20,711 bases of DNA, taken from IMG/VR virus record IMGVR_UViG_3300032223_000711, positions 1 to 20,711 of that record; one strand, written 5' to 3'. Source of the DNA: a virus. This document shows positions 12,763 through 19,929 of the stretch, in pieces. A model generated the notes under the pieces. It was not told the DNA's origin, did not search any database, and saw nothing but the letters and a program-made list of their open reading frames with translations. The first letter of the stretch is position 1; each line of letters begins with the position of its first letter. Made by a program: the position numbers and the translations under genes.

Positions 12763-13179
12763 ATGACTACTAAGTTTTCACACGTTAAAGGTTCAGAAGT
12801 AGAGTTTAAAGGTGGCGGTCTTCGCGACTTTTTTGTCTATAAAGATCTTGGCGTAGCAGATGCAACTAACGGGCGAGTACTTGCCCATATCACCAAAGCT
12901 AATTTGCCGCCAGAAGGTTCGGGCGGTACAGGTTGGCACATACACGTGGCTGAGTTCCAAATCGTTTATATGTTAAAAGGTTGGGCTAAGTTTATGTATG
13001 AAGACAAAATCCATCTAGTCGAAGCAGGCGACTGTGTACAACAACGTCCGGGTATCGTACATTATTTGTATGATTACTCACCAGATATGGAATATCTAGA
13101 AATCATTACACCGGCTGACTACGGAACAGAGCCAGCAGAAGGTCCTTGCGATATACCCGATCCTACTCCTTGGGAGTAA
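12763..13179 (+). CDS. Cupin-domain protein
   Basis: This 138-residue, single-domain cupin has a first motif GTGWHIHVAEFQIVYMLKG (H59, H61 and E64 as likely metal ligands; the Glu comes one or two residues earlier than usual) and a second motif GDCVQQRPGIVH (90s, with H100). The metal-binding beta-barrel could be an isomerase, dioxygenase, sugar-binding or regulatory protein; nothing visible fixes the reaction. The ending DIPDPTPWE is acidic and Pro-rich. The ribosome site AGGAGG is the strongest in the window, suggesting high translation. Only three bases separate its stop from the ATG of the alpha/beta hydrolase, so the two share an mRNA and perhaps a pathway. Confidence 0.85.
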   Translation: MTTKFSHVKGSEVEFKGGGLRDFFVYKDLGVADATNGRVLAHITKANLPPEGSGGTGWHIHVAEFQIVYMLKGWAKFMYEDKIHLVEAGDCVQQRPGIVHYLYDYSPDMEYLEIITPADYGTEPAEGPCDIPDPTPWE

Positions 13180-13182
13180 GTG

Positions 13183-13758
13183 ATGCAGTTAGTTTATATC
13201 CACGGAGCAAGTGCTACTAGCGAAAGCTTCAATTATATTCGAAGCAAGCTGGGTGCGGGTATAGACATCAACTACGACAGCCGTAATGGTTTTGAAAACA
13301 ACCTAGCAGAAATCATAGAGCATTTAAAGTCTGTAAAAGACATAGCATTTATAGCACACAGCCTAGGAGGTATCTATAGCCTACACGTTGCTAACGCTAT
13401 GCCCAAACAGGTATTAGGTGCTGTTACTCTAAGCACACCCTATGGTGGTGCAGAGGTAGCAGAGTATGCCAAATACTTTTTACCATTTAGTCGTTTGATG
13501 CGTGATATTGGTCCTAATAGTTGGGCTTTCAAACAAGCAGATAAGATTAAAATACAGCATCCTTGGACTAATATTGTCACTGTAAAAGGGCAAAGCCCAT
13601 TTATGTTGGCTCACAACGATGGGGTGGTTACAGTTGCTAGCCAGAAACACCACGAGGATATGGAACTAGTAGAAGTAGACTGCAACCATTATGAAGTCGT
13701 TCTTAGTGATCAAGTAGTTGAGTTGATTCAAGAACGGTTAAAAAAGTTCAAGAAATAA
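13183..13758 (+). CDS. Alpha/beta hydrolase (lipase/esterase-like)
   Basis: This 191-residue compact alpha/beta hydrolase has an oxyanion-type HGAS at residues 7-10, the nucleophile elbow AHSLGG with S60, an acid D146 in HNDGVV, and the catalytic H169 in CNHYEVV. All three triad members are in the expected order. The cap domain is minimal, as in small lipases and acyl-ester hydrolases. ATG 13183 is preferred over the overlapping GTG at 13180, since GGGAG is spaced 6 bases from the ATG. No signal peptide is present, so it should act in the host cytoplasm. The downstream phasin-like gene makes a polyester or lipid substrate attractive, but that is inference. Confidence 0.87.
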   Translation: MQLVYIHGASATSESFNYIRSKLGAGIDINYDSRNGFENNLAEIIEHLKSVKDIAFIAHSLGGIYSLHVANAMPKQVLGAVTLSTPYGGAEVAEYAKYFLPFSRLMRDIGPNSWAFKQADKIKIQHPWTNIVTVKGQSPFMLAHNDGVVTVASQKHHEDMELVEVDCNHYEVVLSDQVVELIQERLKKFKK

Positions 13759-13841: not shown

Positions 13842-14057
13842 ATGTTTACATTTGATTCAATCGTTGACACTGTTACAGGTGCTCAAACCAAGTTTGTAGA
13901 TACCTACGTTACAGACAAGAAAGTCAAAGCTGAAGTTACTAAGTTAATTGAAGCACAAGCCGCTTTCACAAAAACCACTTATACTAATACATTGGAACTT
14001 GCTCAATCAGCAGTTAAGAATTTCAATGAACTAGTTTATTCTAAGAAAGGTGCTTAA
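13842..14057 (+). CDS. Short phasin-like protein
   Basis: This 71-residue, helical protein (AQTKFVDTYV, LIEAQAAFTKTTYTNTLEL, AVKNFNELVY) resembles the helical core of phasins, which coat polyhydroxyalkanoate granules in proteobacteria. It is shorter than usual phasins (roughly 110-190 residues), so it may be a minimal core or a look-alike. It has its own sigma70-like promoter and a strong AAGGAG, suggesting early and heavy expression. The TAATATG junction couples it to the next gene. I recall that marine phages carry such small helical protein pairs. A granule-binding role is plausible but unproven; a generic helical DNA- or membrane-associated protein is the alternative. Confidence 0.6.
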   Translation: MFTFDSIVDTVTGAQTKFVDTYVTDKKVKAEVTKLIEAQAAFTKTTYTNTLELAQSAVKNFNELVYSKKGA

Positions 14058-14364: not shown

Positions 14365-14388
14365 AGAAAGGACCGAAAGGTCCTTTCT
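14365..14388. terminator. Bidirectional intrinsic terminator between converging genes
   Basis: AGAAAGGACC-GAAA-GGTCCTTTCT makes a perfect 10-bp stem with a GNRA loop, followed by TATT on the plus strand and preceded by an A-rich flank for the minus strand. It serves the plus-strand island (last stop 14325) and the minus-strand gene whose stop begins at 14388. Confidence 0.9.
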
Positions 14389-14834
14389 TATTGGCTGGTT
14401 AGTGCGTGATGATCTAGAGCTGCTTTGATCTGCTCTAGTGGAAGATCGTGTTCTCTATATCCTGTGATCATATCTCGGACATAGTCTTTGCTAGGTGGTG
14501 CCATAGTTTTGTAATCAGGATCCATAATGTAGGTAGTCGCTGAAAACGGTTTTCCTTTAGCGTGTACTTCTACAGGAATCCTATTGTAGTGTACGTGATA
14601 GTCTTCGTCTTTGTCTAAATGGATGAGATCGTTGTGGCTAATACTCCACAGAATTCCTGCTACAGATGAATGATCGTTGCTGACAATATCAGCATAGTGT
14701 TTGATCAATAATTGGAAGTTGTGTAATAGGGCAGGTCCTATGAACTTGGCGCTGGGGCAGCGTTCTTTAAAATCTTCGCTTAGGGTATTATGCCCATAGG
14801 CAAAATAATATACTGATAGTTCATTGGCTCGCAT
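14388..14834 (-). CDS. Gamma-glutamylcyclotransferase-like protein (GGCT/AIG2 fold)
   Basis: This 148-residue protein begins with the family motif VYYFAYGHN (residues 8-16; most members have YGSN, here Ser is His). The region LDKDEDYHVHYNRIPVEV (73-90) is the usual second signature with the catalytic Glu, here E77. Members cleave gamma-glutamyl dipeptides or amides to pyroglutamate, or remove gamma-glutamyl groups from other substrates. The His in the glycine-loop motif could change substrate choice. The ribosome site is poor: AAGTGAG lies about 15 bases upstream. A late-like ACTAAATA is only 4 bases from the ATG, too close to serve it well. It is the last minus-strand gene before the plus-strand island, with a terminator at its stop. 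Confidence 0.75.
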   Translation of the reverse strand: MRANELSVYYFAYGHNTLSEDFKERCPSAKFIGPALLHNFQLLIKHYADIVSNDHSSVAGILWSISHNDLIHLDKDEDYHVHYNRIPVEVHAKGKPFSATTYIMDPDYKTMAPPSKDYVRDMITGYREHDLPLEQIKAALDHHALTSQ

Positions 14835-14854: not shown

Positions 14855-14942
14855 CAGGATACCATTCCGGGCACGACTCCGTAATATCCTGCCCAGCAGC
14901 CGGGCACACACTAGTAACGCATAACGTCCTAAGGTAGTGTGT
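14855..14942 (-). ncRNA. Structured intergenic segment with a 23S-like loop, possible ncRNA or leader
   Basis: Three perfect inverted repeats fill this short gap: CAGGATA/TATCCTG (14855-14861 and 14885-14891), TGCCC/GGGCA (14890-14894 and 14902-14906) and ACACACTA/TAGTGTGT (14906-14913 and 14935-14942). The octamer GTGCCCGG (minus strand) occurs twice, at 14867-14874 and 14900-14907, and either copy can pair with the single GGGCA between them, so two folds exclude each other. The loop of the ACACACTA stem, 21 bases, reads on the plus strand GTAAC-GC-ATAACG-TCCTAAGG, close to helix 69-71 of 23S rRNA (GTAACTATAACGGTCCTAAGGTAG). No known riboswitch or RNA family is recognised. Whether it is transcribed is unknown; the flanking genes are on the minus strand. 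Confidence 0.45.
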
Positions 14943-16060
14943 TAGGCTTGACCCTCTTCATCCTGTTTTAGTTTGAATGAGAAGTCATCAATTTTGGCAT
15001 TAGGGTAACGAGCCAGTAGTTTTGCTTTGGCATCTTCTTTGCTGTCTGCTTCAAACTCTGCTTGTTTGCCTGATGGTTTGTGAGTAACAGTATATGTTCC
15101 TGGACCGTCTGCTTCAGCTTCAGCTTCTGGAGCTTCTGATGCATAGGACAATGGGAAACGTTTCTTAATATCTGCTTCAGCTTTGGCAACATCATAACCG
15201 CCGCGCATAATATCTTGACTGTTTTTGTTGATTTCTTCGCCGTTTGCAGCGATAGCTGCTACAATGCGTTTCATCAATCCTGGGAATAGTTCAGAAAACT
15301 TTTCATCACTACGGATAGATTGATTACCGTTGTTTAGCTGATTAGTAGGGGCGTGCATCTGCCATTTACCGTTGACATCATCTGCATTCTGTTTGTCAAA
15401 GATACTAACAATAGGGCCTTCGTCGGCATAACGATTGAACCATTGTAGGCCTTGACTTGATCCTGTACAGAAACTGGCATTGAATCCGTGTGCATTGTTG
15501 AATGTATAGCAACTACCGTAGTTGTATGGAATAACTACCAAGAAGCGATCATCATCAATCAGCACAGTTTCTTTTTTGTCTTTTTTATGCTTTTCGATCA
15601 CCGCAGCATCAGCAATACGTCTTAGTTCGTCTCGGTATTCACGATTTTGAATGATAGCTTGAATCTGTCTAATTGATTTAAACTTATTGAAATCTTGATC
15701 TTTTTGTTGTAGCTTGCCTCGAATACTTAGAGCCTTCCACGCACCTAGTGCATCACCACCTTCACCGTTGACATCTTCGTAGTCTGCTTGGCCAGTGGTA
15801 TATAAACGGAATAGCCATTCATCAAATTTACCGTCTGCTGAAAGGTCACCGTACTTGGTGTTGCTCAATGAGTGATCAATGACTTCGCTCCAGGCCTGAC
15901 CCAGTTCTGCATCTGTGGGTTTAGGTCCTAGTCTAGCAACTATAGTCTTAGGGAACGTGCTGTCGTGTTTGATAGCAATTCCTAGCATTTTTAATTTTTG
16001 TGGATCCTTGGCAATCTTGTTGATGTAGTTTGCTTCGGAGATTAATTGTAAGAGCTTCAT
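14942..16060 (-). CDS. Unknown protein with capsid-targeting-like N-terminus
   Basis: This 372-residue protein starts MKLLQLISEA, which fits the T4 internal-protein pattern with a gp21-type cut after E9. The central part holds NYGSCYTFNNAHGFNASFCTG, then WFNRYADEGPIVSIFDKQN and KWQMHAPTNQL. A similar Cys-Thr-Gly, aromatic-Tyr, GPIV.I then Q.H pattern occurs, as I recall, in several large-phage proteins of unknown role. The C-terminal 70 residues form a small beta domain (GTYTVTHKPSGKQAEFEADS), possibly a duplicated tail module. It overlaps the upstream gene as ATGA. Being cut and packaged in the head would let it enter the cell with the DNA; that is inference from the N-terminus alone. Confidence 0.75.
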   Translation of the reverse strand: MKLLQLISEANYINKIAKDPQKLKMLGIAIKHDSTFPKTIVARLGPKPTDAELGQAWSEVIDHSLSNTKYGDLSADGKFDEWLFRLYTTGQADYEDVNGEGGDALGAWKALSIRGKLQQKDQDFNKFKSIRQIQAIIQNREYRDELRRIADAAVIEKHKKDKKETVLIDDDRFLVVIPYNYGSCYTFNNAHGFNASFCTGSSQGLQWFNRYADEGPIVSIFDKQNADDVNGKWQMHAPTNQLNNGNQSIRSDEKFSELFPGLMKRIVAAIAANGEEINKNSQDIMRGGYDVAKAEADIKKRFPLSYASEAPEAEAEADGPGTYTVTHKPSGKQAEFEADSKEDAKAKLLARYPNAKIDDFSFKLKQDEEGQA

Positions 16061-16932
16061 CCTGAAATTAAACTCCTCTTAAAGAATGCCAACACAGTTC
16101 CAAGTTTAGCTTGATCGCCACCTGAAATATCTTTTAGTATCAAAGATACTCCTTCCTCACTTCTGTTGTTATATCCGCCATAACGACTTGCGCTGATCTC
16201 ACCGGTTTGTTCTGGATAGTAATGTCCAGCGGTCAATGCCAATGCTTGTTGAATAGCACCTTTGATAAAACTAGGAACATCAGTTGAACCAGCTTCAAGG
16301 GCTTCTAGACCGCTTTGTAATGATTTGGCCTGATTGAGCTTCTTTTCTGCTTTGTGGAAAGCATCGTTCTTGATCTGTGTGGCTACCATACCTTTGATAT
16401 CTGCAATAGCAGTATTGATAGATTTAATCCATAATGGACGGAACTTGATCATAATAGCATCTGGATCAAGTTGATTTACTTTTTTTAGTTCTGAGTCACG
16501 TTGTTTTCTAGTAGACTTAACATCTTTGGTGTTGCCAGTGTCTTTACCAACGTAGATAGCTTTGGGGTTACCACCTAGCTCTCCTTTAAGGAAATCTAGT
16601 ATGTTGCCGCCACGATCGTTTTGAAATGTCACAGGATCGCCGCCTGAGCTGGCCACTGCTTCGTAGCTGCCGCTGGTTTGTTTGATAGCACCTACACCCT
16701 TGGGATACTTCATTAGCACCCAACTACCTTTGTAGTGATTCTTTAGTTCGCTCCAGCTGATTTTACCTGCTGGAACATAGGTTTGTTCGTGTCCTAGCCC
16801 TTTTTGTGAATGTAGGAATTTAACTACCTGTGGGCCACCTGGAAGTGATTTTACCACATCCATACTAGAACTAACTTCAAATACTAGTGATTCACATAGT
16901 TGGGCAAATAATTGATATGTTTCTGGCTTCAT
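16057..16932 (-). CDS. Unknown phage protein, helical C-terminal half
   Basis: This 291-residue protein has a mixed beta-rich N-terminal half (SWSELKNHYKGSWVLMKYP, then GGNILDFLKGELGG and KAIYVGKDTG) and a helical C-terminal half. I do not recognise a family. The N-terminus MKPETYQLFAQLCES has a possible LxE-S cleavage site near residue 14, weaker than in its neighbours. A GATAAATA motif at 16938-16945 predicts a transcript start at the ATG itself, so the mRNA would be leaderless; no ribosome site is visible. Its stop overlaps the next ATG as ATGA, coupling it to the gene at 14942-16060. Confidence 0.78.
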   Translation of the reverse strand: MKPETYQLFAQLCESLVFEVSSSMDVVKSLPGGPQVVKFLHSQKGLGHEQTYVPAGKISWSELKNHYKGSWVLMKYPKGVGAIKQTSGSYEAVASSGGDPVTFQNDRGGNILDFLKGELGGNPKAIYVGKDTGNTKDVKSTRKQRDSELKKVNQLDPDAIMIKFRPLWIKSINTAIADIKGMVATQIKNDAFHKAEKKLNQAKSLQSGLEALEAGSTDVPSFIKGAIQQALALTAGHYYPEQTGEISASRYGGYNNRSEEGVSLILKDISGGDQAKLGTVLAFFKRSLISG

Positions 16933-16937
16933 AAGAA

Positions 16938-16945
16938 TATTTATC
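16938..16945 (-). promoter_or_regulatory. Late-type promoter predicting a leaderless mRNA
   Basis: The minus strand reads GATAAATA and contains the TAA stop of the preceding gene. With the usual -13 to -6 placement, transcription would start at base 16932, the A of the ATG. It is either a true leaderless start or a coincidental motif. Confidence 0.45.
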
Positions 16946-17786
16946 TGTCGTGTCCGAGCCTTGGGGCGTTACGATCGCGTCCTAGTTCTCGTGTGTTTTG
17001 TGGATCTGTGCTGTCTTGTTCTGGCCAGCTATAGATATAGTTACCAAACTCGTCACGCACTAATAACCAACGAATACCTGCTGCTGTATACTGTCTAATA
17101 TCAGCGTTGTATCCTGGAATAGTTGTGTCAAAATCAATGTTGCCGTCACCTAGATCGTCACCGTGATTTCTTACCCAATTAGCCACAGCATTAACTTCCT
17201 GTGTGCTGTTAGGGCCTTGACCGCCTAGATTAGCAATCATCCAGATATCATCTGTAGGAGTGCGTGTCATACTGCGGAATAGCTGTCTGCCTAGTGTACG
17301 GATAGCACGGCTCATATTGCCAGGTAGGTTAGCTACCTGATGGAACTCTGGATTCTGCACACCTGCATTAGCTAGTGCATCTCCTGCGACCCTAGGAAGG
17401 TTTTGATTATCTACACGGATAGCAGGAACATCTGCATCTTCCGGCTCTGGATATCCAGGATCATCTGGATCTACATCAATATCACGCATACGACCTAGTA
17501 GGTCACGCATACGCTGATTAGGTTCAACACGACCTGCTGCTCGTTGTGTGTCACGTTGACTGGCTCGTCTCATTTCTGGACGATCAGCACCCGGCTCTTG
17601 TTCAGGCTCTTGGTGCTGTTCTGGTTCTTTTTTGGCTAGAGGATTATCTGAAGGTGTGTTGAATAGATGATCTAAATCATCCCAAGGACTTTTTTCTTTG
17701 TCCTTGGTTGGCTTAGGTGAACCTTCGTTTTCTTCTGGTTTTCTTTTACGCTCTGCTTCCTGCAGATAATCTCTAAAGGTTTTCAT
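16941..17786 (-). CDS. Disordered, Glu/Pro/Arg-rich protein with capsid-targeting-like N-terminus
   Basis: This 281-residue protein begins MKTFRDYLQEAE, nearly identical in pattern to the T4 internal-protein start MKTYQEFIAEA, with a predicted gp21-type cut after E10. Residues 12-100 are low-complexity, rich in Lys, Glu, Pro, Asp, Gln and Arg, as in packaged basic internal proteins. The C-terminal half looks folded (PTDDIWMIANLGGQGPNS, then TAAGIRWLLVRDEFGNYIYS). No enzyme family is recognised. It is joined to the nuclease gene by TAATATG with one base between them, so both come from one mRNA. Head packaging is inferred from the N-terminus and composition. Confidence 0.78.
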   Translation of the reverse strand: MKTFRDYLQEAERKRKPEENEGSPKPTKDKEKSPWDDLDHLFNTPSDNPLAKKEPEQHQEPEQEPGADRPEMRRASQRDTQRAAGRVEPNQRMRDLLGRMRDIDVDPDDPGYPEPEDADVPAIRVDNQNLPRVAGDALANAGVQNPEFHQVANLPGNMSRAIRTLGRQLFRSMTRTPTDDIWMIANLGGQGPNSTQEVNAVANWVRNHGDDLGDGNIDFDTTIPGYNADIRQYTAAGIRWLLVRDEFGNYIYSWPEQDSTDPQNTRELGRDRNAPRLGHDR

Positions 17787-17787
17787 A

Positions 17788-18621
17788 TTAGTCTACTGAT
17801 GCGTTAGCGCCACATAATTTACGTTTGGCGTTTGTTAATGCACCAAAGTCCACTGGCCATTCTTGTCCAGGCTGTAGCTCTTTAGCATTTGCTGGGAAAG
17901 CAAATTTTACACCAGCTTGCTGTTCAATCTGTGCGATTGGCAAACGGAACTTGGTTAGGTCATTGCCTAGGTTTGGATATGGTGCATTATGCGGGAACAT
18001 CCAACCTGCTACAGCACCTGTGTTTTGATCAACTACGATCTTATAGAAAGCGTGTGGAACAACTACGCCAGCACCAATCTTCTTGTCTTGTGCGTTGTAA
18101 ACACCGCCTGAGATAACGTTGAAGTTATGATTGCCTTGGAATGCCCAACCGCGTACTGAAGTTTCTAATAGTTTCCAAATGCCACGATTCAATGAACCAG
18201 CCTGTGGACTCATATTTGTCATTAGGAATGACTCATACTCTACCTGTTGATCCCAGCTTTGGTCTCCGTCTGGAGCCATATGTCCTTTGTCGTAGCCTGT
18301 GCCAGCATAGTCATCTGGACGAGCGCCACCTTGGATGCTTTGGTCAGCTACGAAAGCATTTGAACGTGCTACACAACCTAATGCGTGGCCTGGTGTTAGT
18401 GTCCACATAACAAAACGTGGTAGTTTTGCAGGAGCATCATAGCCAACTAGATATGCTTCACGGCAAATTGGTTGTACTGCGCCCTGTACCTGCGGCATAC
18501 CGTATGGTGCGTGTGCTTGACATTGTTGAACTGTACCTGGAGCCCGTTGTGTCCAAGCAAACGACTGTGTGCTTGTTAGTGCTGTTAAAGCCATAACTAG
18601 CCCTGCTAATAATTTTTTCAT
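17788..18621 (-). CDS. Secreted DNA/RNA non-specific endonuclease (NUC1 family)
   Basis: This 277-residue enzyme belongs to the Serratia-nuclease (NUC1, beta-beta-alpha-metal) family that cuts single- and double-stranded DNA and RNA. The family DRGH motif appears as DKGH (D111-H114, H114 the general base), and LNRGIW gives the metal-binding N146. The start is set at ATG 18621, since MKKLLAGLVMALTALTSTQS and FA form a clear Sec signal peptide with a cut after residue 22, and AAAGGG is well placed; a longer frame from 18666 lacks this. Cysteines (C34, C53, C83 and one near the end) fit disulfides outside the cytoplasm. An AATAAATA late motif lies upstream (18654-18661). It should act in the periplasm or after lysis. 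Confidence 0.93.
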   Translation of the reverse strand: MKKLLAGLVMALTALTSTQSFAWTQRAPGTVQQCQAHAPYGMPQVQGAVQPICREAYLVGYDAPAKLPRFVMWTLTPGHALGCVARSNAFVADQSIQGGARPDDYAGTGYDKGHMAPDGDQSWDQQVEYESFLMTNMSPQAGSLNRGIWKLLETSVRGWAFQGNHNFNVISGGVYNAQDKKIGAGVVVPHAFYKIVVDQNTGAVAGWMFPHNAPYPNLGNDLTKFRLPIAQIEQQAGVKFAFPANAKELQPGQEWPVDFGALTNAKRKLCGANASVD

Positions 18622-18653: not shown

Positions 18654-18661
18654 TATTTATT
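18654..18661 (-). promoter_or_regulatory. Late-type promoter for the secreted nuclease
   Basis: The minus strand reads AATAAATA, 7 of 8 to the late motif, overlapping the TAA of the preceding gene. The predicted start near 18648 gives a 27-base leader with AAAGGG before ATG 18621. Confidence 0.65.
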
Positions 18662-19292
18662 GCCAAGCGACCATTTTAAAGCGTTCTTCAGGAATGCCAA
18701 AGTAACGACATTTCCAGCGACTCTGCGCAAAAAAGTCTAGATGATGCCACTCTTGCTTGCGTTGTAGTATCTGCTGTGCAGCATCTCGCCAATCTATGCT
18801 GGATAGCACGGGCTCCACAGTTTCTTTAACTGCGCATATTTCTTCATAGTCAAAGCTGTCCCATTCCCAGTGTAAGACTTCAAATGCTCTGCCCTCACGA
18901 TCAGCATAGTCCATTGAAAAGTCCAGACCCCATTTAGGACGAAGTGCTATAATCTTGTTGACTAAGGGTATTGTGCGAGCCCAATACTCTAGTTCTTCTA
19001 GAGCAGCACCTGTGTAGCCCTTGCGTTCAAATAGTAAACTGTGATTGAGATGTGCGCCTTCTATCTTGGGCTGTTGAGTGAACCAATCTTCTTTTAAGGC
19101 TCGTAGATGTTCTCTGTGCTTCTTAGGTTTAGCTCTGTTGCCGTAGGCAAAATGTTGTTCTAGGGGAGTAAGATCGTAGCCATTTTGATCAAATAGATCC
19201 AGATCGTCTATGGTGGGTTGATATAATATCTTTGCTATGGGCTGGTCCCAATAACCATTAGCATCAAACTGATTGTCAGTCAGCGTGATCAT
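18657..19292 (-). CDS. Unknown phage protein
   Basis: This 211-residue protein has the start set at ATG 19292 (MITLTDNQFDANGYWDQP), one base after the TAA of the previous gene; the frame extends to 19352, but that part overlaps the fibre-like gene. It contains HLNHSLLFERKGYTGAALEE, RPKWGLDFSMDYADREGRAF and EVLHWEWDSFDYEEI, a Trp/Tyr/Glu-rich pattern without a motif that I can name. I recall no family of known function. No signal peptide or membrane segment is present once the longer start is rejected. Translation is probably coupled to the upstream fibre-like gene, and its stop overlaps the nuclease promoter. Confidence 0.75.
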   Translation of the reverse strand: MITLTDNQFDANGYWDQPIAKILYQPTIDDLDLFDQNGYDLTPLEQHFAYGNRAKPKKHREHLRALKEDWFTQQPKIEGAHLNHSLLFERKGYTGAALEELEYWARTIPLVNKIIALRPKWGLDFSMDYADREGRAFEVLHWEWDSFDYEEICAVKETVEPVLSSIDWRDAAQQILQRKQEWHHLDFFAQSRWKCRYFGIPEERFKMVAWQ

Positions 19293-19293
19293 T

Positions 19294-19929
19294 TTACTGA
19301 CTACCAAATATCCAAACACCGCCAATGGAACTAGTGGTTGAAAGTACTTCAATCATCATACTACTCTGTGCTACGCCACCGCCACCTAATACATAGGTAA
19401 TGCTACCGTTACTACACTGACTGGATGTGACTCCGGTAAATGTGAATGTGTTATTATTTGCGTAAGGAGTAATAAAGATTTTAACTCTGCGTCCTGCTGT
19501 AAAGTTGCTGAGTGTAATATCTCTATTACCGTCGGCACTAGGTTGCCAAAATATCATAGTTGGGCCTGTGGTCATATCAACTGCCAATGTGGTAATCTGA
19601 GTGGTAACTAGAGAAGTAAAACTATCAATACCAGTTGGAGTTGAGTTAGGTATGGCTGTTACCCAATTGCCTTCGTAGTAGACAAACAAGTCACCACTGA
19701 CGCTGTCCCACCATAGCCACCCTGCTTCGGGATTGTCTGGAGGTGTTGGACCTTCGTAGACTGTACTACCCATTCCGCTTCCGCTGACAATTTTACCGCC
19801 TGGGTTACCGTCGCTGATGCGAATGGTGTTGGTGTTTGAATCGTACCAAAGACGATTTATTTCTCCGATGAGAGTTTCACCGTCAGTGCGGTCTTTGTAA
19901 CTGGAAAAGAATTTTTGTATGAAAGCCAC
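19294..19929 (-). CDS. Fibre-like structural protein, GTG start
   Basis: This 211-residue protein has an N-terminal module (about residues 14-50: RTDGETLIGEINRLWYDSNT, ending ISDGNPGG) of the type seen at the start of phage fibre or tropism-determinant proteins. A glycine-rich linker and a GWLWWDSVSGDLFVYYEGNW segment (about 69-88) follow. The C-terminus is a beta-rich, Thr/Ser/Asn-rich domain (ITLSNFTAGRRVKIFITPY and onward). No catalytic motif is visible. It begins at GTG 19929 with AAGGAG upstream; that GGAG can pair with a CTCC just before the GTG (GGAG-TAA-CTCC), which may hold back translation. A tail fibre or attachment protein is the likely role. Confidence 0.8.
   Translation of the reverse strand: MAFIQKFFSSYKDRTDGETLIGEINRLWYDSNTNTIRISDGNPGGKIVSGSGMGSTVYEGPTPPDNPEAGWLWWDSVSGDLFVYYEGNWVTAIPNSTPTGIDSFTSLVTTQITTLAVDMTTGPTMIFWQPSADGNRDITLSNFTAGRRVKIFITPYANNNTFTFTGVTSSQCSNGSITYVLGGGGVAQSSMMIEVLSTTSSIGGVWIFGSQ

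What the first reader, a model, noticed from the sequence alone, without database searches (positions are those of the whole stretch)
17788..18621. Phage-encoded secreted non-specific nuclease
A NUC1-family enzyme with a clear signal peptide and likely disulfides is encoded among late phage genes. Sent to the periplasm it could destroy DNA of competing phages on entry, degrade DNA released at lysis, or recycle nucleotides along with RNR. An exported nuclease is uncommon in T4-like phages.
Basis: partly seen in the sequence, partly recalled or inferred. Interest (0 to 1): 0.55.

Follow-up and report, generated by a model that had tools for sequence, protein, structure and literature searches.

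The report
Swappable secreted nuclease of freshwater phages
This virus of bacteria carries a gene for a DNA-cutting enzyme that the infected cell would export out of its cytoplasm, and related freshwater viruses keep such an enzyme in the same place even when it comes from an unrelated enzyme family, which suggests that cutting DNA outside the cytoplasm matters to them.

Summary
Window 18621..17788 (-) encodes a 277-aa PF01223 (DNA/RNA non-specific) nuclease with a signal peptide, an intact active site and four cysteines. 'Uncommon in T4-like phages' does not hold: it is rare among isolates but common in uncultured, mostly freshwater phages (284 confirmed IMG/VR stretches).

Three further results. 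(1) The gene is under strong purifying selection (median dN/dS 0.08). It often carries its own T4-type late-promoter core, so it is probably made late. (2) Its slot is swappable. In a scan that used only the neighbouring gene g222, 46 of 79 evaluable loci have an exported nuclease directly downstream, of one of three kinds: this DKGH type (20), a divergent DRGH type (4), or a structurally unrelated staphylococcal-nuclease type (22). (3) In 51 large records no record had both folds; among the 35 not chosen by nuclease, 13 had a NUC1, 15 an SNase and 7 neither.

Best reading: a late-made exported nuclease acting on DNA outside the inner membrane, most likely DNA of co-infecting phages, with DNA released at lysis as close rival. 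Export and catalysis are inferred from sequence; the target is untested. Recycling linked to RNR is not supported.

The parts
17788..18621 (-). Exported NUC1 (PF01223) nuclease, 'type A', 277 aa; signal peptide about residues 1-22; DKGH motif 111-114; N145, E153, R157; C34, C53, C83, C270
18654..18661 (-). Late-promoter-like AATAAATA (one mismatch to TATAAATA), its first base 40 nt upstream of the nuclease ATG; it overlaps the end of g222
18657..19325 (-). g222: conserved cytoplasmic protein of unknown function directly upstream; anchor of the nuclease slot (start codon uncertain)
   Evidence: no Pfam match, no isolate match, no fold match
16941..17786 (-). g281: unknown protein directly downstream; present in some relatives, absent in others (slot boundary)
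16057..16932 (-). g291: unknown protein, conserved downstream flank of the slot
14942..16060 (-). g372: unknown protein, conserved downstream flank of the slot

Best explanation
The gene encodes a Sec-exported, probably disulfide-stabilised, sugar-non-specific (Serratia/NucA/EndoG-type) nuclease. It is transcribed late, often from its own phage late promoter. Export separates it from the phage's own replicating DNA and lets it build up in the host envelope, where it cuts DNA outside the inner membrane. Related phages generally carry at most one such enzyme and can replace it by a divergent NUC1 or by an exported staphylococcal-type nuclease in the same slot, so what is selected is the activity in that compartment, not a particular fold. 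The most likely use is destruction of DNA that reaches the periplasm from co-infecting phages, the role that host endonuclease I is reported to play in T4-infected E. coli (recalled). Shown at sequence level: family, conserved active site, signal-like N-terminus, purifying selection, slot sharing, non-overlap. Inferred: activity, export, timing. Conjectured: the target.
For: PF01223 match and fold. Catalytic and Cys residues identical in 67 of 67 rows. Signal-like N-termini in 67 of 67 type A, 58 of 58 type B and 59 of 59 type C unique sequences, against 126 of 867 control ORFs. Median dN/dS 0.078 over 162 pairs, maximum 0.18. Late-promoter core TAAATA at -42..-20 in 29 of 64 distinct upstream regions, against a Markov mean of 2.3 (maximum 8 in 200 repeats), 0 in a distal control stretch and 1 on the other strand; weaker but present for types B (11 of 47) and C (18 of 55), Markov means about 2. 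g222-selected scan: A 20, B 4, C 22, other 33, edge 1 of 80. abh-selected scan: of 79 loci, 8 carry g222 and all 8 have a nuclease next to it (A 2, B 3, C 3). No record with both folds: 0 of 25 and 0 of 26.
Against: No experiment on any member. Activity, location and timing are inferred. DKGH replaces DRGH in type A. A late promoter fits a lysis-time role at least as well as exclusion, because T4's own exclusion proteins act early (PMC7677548 passages call Spackle an early product). In 33 of 79 evaluable loci something else sits after g222, and one 345-kb record (G045) has none of PF01223, PF00565 or PF04231, so the function is not essential. 35 of 64 upstream regions lack the promoter core at that place. 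Imm was not found in 12 records, but that search had no positive control. Many records are fragments, which weakens the non-overlap test.
Confidence: 0.48

Rival explanations
1. Lysis helper: the enzyme is stored in the periplasm and released at lysis, where it chops host and unpackaged DNA, lowers viscosity, frees virions and removes DNA that would trap progeny. The target is DNA in the lysate.
For: Late-promoter core; interchangeable non-specific nucleases of different folds suit a bulk clearing task; export prevents self-damage before lysis.
Against: No consistent linkage to lysis genes was seen in the neighbour clusters, though holins and endolysins were not searched for specifically. A burst-wide benefit would predict near-universal presence, yet some phages lack it.
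Confidence: 0.34
2. Nutrient scavenging: the infected cell degrades environmental or periplasmic DNA for phosphate and nucleotides.
For: Many carriers appear to come from freshwater metagenomes (my reading of IMG sample numbers, not checked by a call); extracellular nucleases serve such a role in bacteria (PMC4372405 introduction passage).
Against: Late expression leaves little time; no linkage to RNR (nrdA near the nuclease in 5 of 240 loci); uptake genes were not looked for.
Confidence: 0.08
3. Virion-associated or envelope-passage enzyme, for example one that degrades extracellular DNA around cells during adsorption.
For: It sits near tail-fibre-like and structural genes in the window and several relatives.
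Against: An N-terminal signal peptide does not fit cytoplasmic virion assembly; in other phages it lies beside DNA polymerase, terminase or Dps-like genes.
Confidence: 0.05
4. Passenger gene: a selfish or recently captured host gene with no role in the phage.
For: Varied neighbourhoods; in 14 of 36 record pairs the nuclease is 67-74% identical while the terminase is only 31-34%, suggesting movement between phages.
Against: dN/dS 0.08, invariant active site, own late promoter, replacement by analogous enzymes in the same slot.
Confidence: 0.05

Closest known systems
PF01223 secreted nucleases (Serratia marcescens nuclease, Anabaena NucA) and mitochondrial EndoG/EXOG
   Same: Profile match, predicted fold, His-Asn-Glu active-site positions, signal peptide as in the secreted bacterial enzymes
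   Different: Phage-encoded, 19-26% identical in the structural comparison, DKGH instead of DRGH in the type A clade, probable late phage promoter
'Periplasmic DNA/RNA non-specific endonuclease' of Klebsiella phages K64-1/RaK2, Yersinia phages GN1/YerA41, Xanthomonas phage XaC1, Sinorhizobium phage Phosso
   Same: PF01223-type; signal-like N-termini in GN1, K64-1, XaC1 and Phosso; phage-encoded. The localisation is therefore already on record as annotation
   Different: About 31-35% identical, different phage groups, no late-promoter or slot data known to me
Campylobacter prophage/island DNases CJE0256 (dns), CJE0566, CJE1441
   Same: CJIE4 nucA appears in the homology search; predicted exported; CJE1441 disruption shows extracellular DNA degradation and the three are reported to block natural transformation (PMC4372405, PMC3995785 passages)
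   Different: Carried by integrated temperate elements and act in the lysogen; about 25% identical; the present ones are in T4-like, apparently lytic phages
Exported SNase (PF00565) of Rhizobium phages RHph_TM30/Y65 and relatives
   Same: About 46% identical to the type C occupant of the slot, with a signal-like N-terminus in RHph_TM30
   Different: Lies close to nrdA/nrdB there; different fold from the window's enzyme
T4 superinfection exclusion (Imm, Spackle; host endonuclease I in the periplasm, recalled)
   Same: Possible logic: incoming DNA held up in the periplasm is destroyed
   Different: T4 relies on inhibitors plus a host nuclease; here the phage would bring its own nuclease, made late

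Membership tests
PF01223 DNA/RNA non-specific endonuclease | Profile match above the curated cut-off over the domain | tested here: met
   136.5 bits against a cut-off of 23, profile 12-217 of 223
PF01223 DNA/RNA non-specific endonuclease | D-R-G-H motif with catalytic His, plus metal-binding Asn and conserved Glu | tested here: met
   DKGH at 111-114, N145, E153 identical in 67 of 67 rows; R is replaced by K, a noted deviation. Functional roles are recalled from Serratia nuclease
PF01223 DNA/RNA non-specific endonuclease | Beta-beta-alpha metal nuclease fold | tested here: met
   Foldseek and VIA matches to EndoG, NucA, Serratia nuclease; the model is weak around residues 113-144
PF01223 DNA/RNA non-specific endonuclease | Mg-dependent cleavage of DNA and RNA | not testable with these tools
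   No assay
Exported (periplasmic or secreted) protein | Signal peptide conserved across the family | tested here: met
   Home-made filter, 67 of 67 type A against 126 of 867 controls; no SignalP run
T4-type late gene | TATAAATA-like late promoter upstream | tested here: met
   Met for the family as an enrichment (TAAATA core in 29 of 64 distinct upstream regions); the window has AATAAATA at -40; 35 of 64 lack the core there
Phage superinfection-exclusion system | Blocks or destroys DNA of a second phage | not testable with these tools
   Needs infection experiments
Phage superinfection-exclusion system | Linked Imm-type protein | tested here: inconclusive
   PF14373 in 0 of 12 records, with no positive control

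The most novel reading that the evidence does not exclude
A broad group of T4-like aquatic phages carries a dedicated one-per-genome 'exported nuclease' function, filled interchangeably by structurally unrelated enzymes in the same slot and switched on late, that destroys competitor phage DNA in the envelope: a fold-independent, phage-encoded counterpart of host endonuclease I in exclusion.
Probability: 0.38. Interest if true: 0.75.

Novelty: new variant of a known kind. Interest (0 to 1): 0.6.

Why it matters
Phage-encoded exported nucleases have been annotated one at a time and left without a role. The repeated use of one slot by NUC1 and SNase enzymes, and the absence of records with both, indicate selection for nuclease activity outside the cytoplasm in an abundant group of environmental phages. 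That makes an old question, what happens to the DNA of a second phage in an infected cell, testable, and cultured phages that encode homologues of both folds exist.

Tried and rejected
RNR-linked recycling: rejected as a linkage argument. Vertical inheritance: disfavoured by identity comparison, but the tree test did not reject one terminase clade on the nuclease tree (p-AU 0.905; the quick search missed the better tree), so gene transfer rests on identities and neighbourhoods only. Host gene just captured: the only close hit in genome contigs (L082, 42%) lies on a 10-kb contig binned as Actinomycetota whose 1060-aa ORF looks rIIA-like to me with an intein-like stretch (my reading), probably phage; that scan used two short patterns only. 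g222 as nuclease inhibitor: no fold or family match; it also sits beside other genes, so not supported. A fourth exported nuclease in the seven nuclease-less records: not found with PF01223, PF04231 or PF00565, with controls ringing. Imm: inconclusive. Host prediction was not achieved.

Corrections on the way: the first signal-peptide filter excluded Pro and mis-chose starts (A 65 of 66, B 41 of 55, C 45 of 57) and was replaced (which allows any start codon in the first 60 codons; controls rose from 82 to 126 of 867). The first slot count (other 33, C 18, A 16, none/edge 11, B 2) missed genes through ORF choice and was replaced by tblastn. One search stopped at the display step and was redone. 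In one search alignment rows were read in as if DNA (warnings shown); per-type locus counts there are by best query and include outer relatives.

Print: phage exported nuclease with superinfection was looked for (listings only; 0 papers). No paper proposing this was noticed in those listings; subscription journals are mostly not held. T4/endonuclease I exclusion is recalled, not found in the passages read.

Full report
What is there. The ORF at 18621..17788 (-) begins with ATG, has 277 codons and is a clear PF01223 nuclease. The nearest solved relatives are Anabaena NucA, EndoG, EXOG and Serratia nuclease. The predicted model (mean pLDDT 73.9, weak around residues 113-144) finds the same proteins by structure. 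The N-terminus reads as a signal peptide ending before W23.

Relatives. A scan of IMG/VR with the protein gave 284 confirmed stretches; the best 80 were kept, 67-94% identical. In 67 distinct rows (window included) D111, K112, G113, H114, N136, N145, R146, E153 and the four cysteines never vary, while the signal sequences differ freely in letters but not in character; R157 is invariant among the 22 rows. dN/dS between pairs at least 85% identical has median 0.078 and maximum 0.18 over 162 pairs. Among isolates the match is rare and distant: 39 of 50,697 records, none at 60% identity or more, including phages where the product is already named a periplasmic nuclease.

Which phages. Of 12 records behind the loci 4 have a gp23 capsid gene, and of 28 records 9 have a T4-type terminase; most records are fragments. 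The genes next to the nuclease differ: DNA polymerase B, T4-type terminase, a ferritin/Dps-like protein, HNH endonucleases, an AlgH-like protein and others. In nine records with both genes, 14 of the 36 pairs (L057 or L075 against the other seven) have terminases 31-34% identical but nucleases 67-74% identical, and the pair L057/L075 shows the reverse (terminase 80%, nuclease 70%). This suggests exchange between phage lineages, but an AU test did not reject the vertical grouping.

Timing. Upstream of the start codon the late-promoter core TAAATA occurs at -42..-20 in 29 of 64 distinct regions; random sequences of the same make-up give 2.3 on average, a distal stretch gives 0 and the other strand 1. 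The exact octamer TATAAATA is found in only 6 of 64 within 110 nt. The same enrichment, weaker, is seen for the two other nuclease types described below: 11 of 47 and 18 of 55.

The slot. A scan with an unrelated window gene (alpha/beta hydrolase, 13180-13755) brought 79 sister loci. Eight of them carry g222, and all eight have an exported nuclease next to it: two like the window's (type A), three a 33%-identical PF01223 enzyme with DRGH (type B), and three a 144-145-aa PF00565 staphylococcal-type nuclease with a signal peptide (type C). Directly 3' of g222 lie type A in 20, B in 4, C in 22, something else in 33, and one is at a contig edge. Grouped at 90% g222 identity these are 15, 4, 16, 13 and 1 of 49 groups. 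The other occupants include, by my reading of the translations, a dCMP-deaminase-like protein, epimerase-like proteins and periplasmic binding proteins, so the place takes cargo in general but nucleases dominate. The g222 alignment used as query was itself built from loci that carry nucleases, which may bias the scan towards such phages.

Type B and C relatives. Type B: 104 confirmed stretches. All unique sequences with enough upstream DNA pass the signal filter: A 67 of 67, B 58 of 58, C 59 of 59, controls 126 of 867. Catalytic positions are kept: B D104-R105-G106-H107, N138, E146; C D36, D38, R58, D63, E66, R110 in at least 98% of rows (roles recalled).

One per phage. In 25 large records (105-367 kb) 13 have A, 3 B, 8 C, 1 none, and none has two. 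In 26 further records chosen through g222 or the hydrolase, 8 have a NUC1, 12 an SNase, 6 neither, none both. Taking the 35 records not chosen by nuclease, the chance of no overlap is 5e-5, or 5e-4 after I removed 11 near-duplicates by hand (24 left); records are fragments of unequal length, so these numbers are indicative only. Some phages without a nuclease after g222 have one elsewhere (G037, G038, G041), and seven have none of the three families tested, among them a 345-kb record.

How it most likely works. Export, late synthesis and an unspecific nuclease whose fold can be changed but whose compartment cannot point to DNA outside the inner membrane as substrate. Candidates are DNA of a second phage and DNA set free at lysis. 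I prefer the first because the gene behaves as an accessory, exchangeable trait, but the late promoter fits both and only infection experiments can decide. Precedent exists for exported nucleases of this family on mobile elements keeping other DNA out: the Campylobacter prophage DNases reported to inhibit natural transformation (PMC4372405 and PMC3995785, passages read).

Novelty. The enzyme family and the idea of a periplasmic phage nuclease are known. What I did not find in print (listings only) is its frequency in aquatic T4-like phages and its replacement by an unrelated exported nuclease in the same slot.

Noticed in passing
window 12763-13758 (+): A cupin gene followed directly by an alpha/beta hydrolase, on the strand opposite to the structural genes; the hydrolase is conserved in at least 79 IMG/VR stretches and the cupin is 93-99% identical where present.
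   Followed up: partly
window 13842-14057 (+): Small 71-aa protein that looks phasin-like to me (no Pfam or PHROG match); present in only some relatives.
   Followed up: no
window 14388-14834 (-): Gamma-glutamyl cyclotransferase-like protein (PF06094) in a phage.
   Followed up: no
L071:7559-7999 and similar loci: A ferritin/Dps-like gene lies directly or one gene upstream of the nuclease in about a dozen type A loci (cluster 11).
   Followed up: partly
L058:6364-6912, L021:4867-5304: AlgH-like (DUF179) and DUF454 genes, typical bacterial genes, beside the nuclease in several phage contigs.
   Followed up: no
L403-L418: In one phage group the slot after g222 holds dCMP-deaminase-like and cytidylyltransferase-like genes (by eye) instead of a nuclease.
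   Followed up: partly
L394, L435: Slot occupants resembling periplasmic solute-binding proteins (TctC-like, TRAP-like by eye).
   Followed up: no
L082: Contig in an Actinomycetota MAG carries a rIIA-like protein with an intein-like insert and an exported nuclease; probably a misbinned phage.
   Followed up: partly
L437:957-4354: In Rhizobium phage RHph_TM30 the exported SNase gene follows nrdB-nrdA with one small gene between.
   Followed up: no
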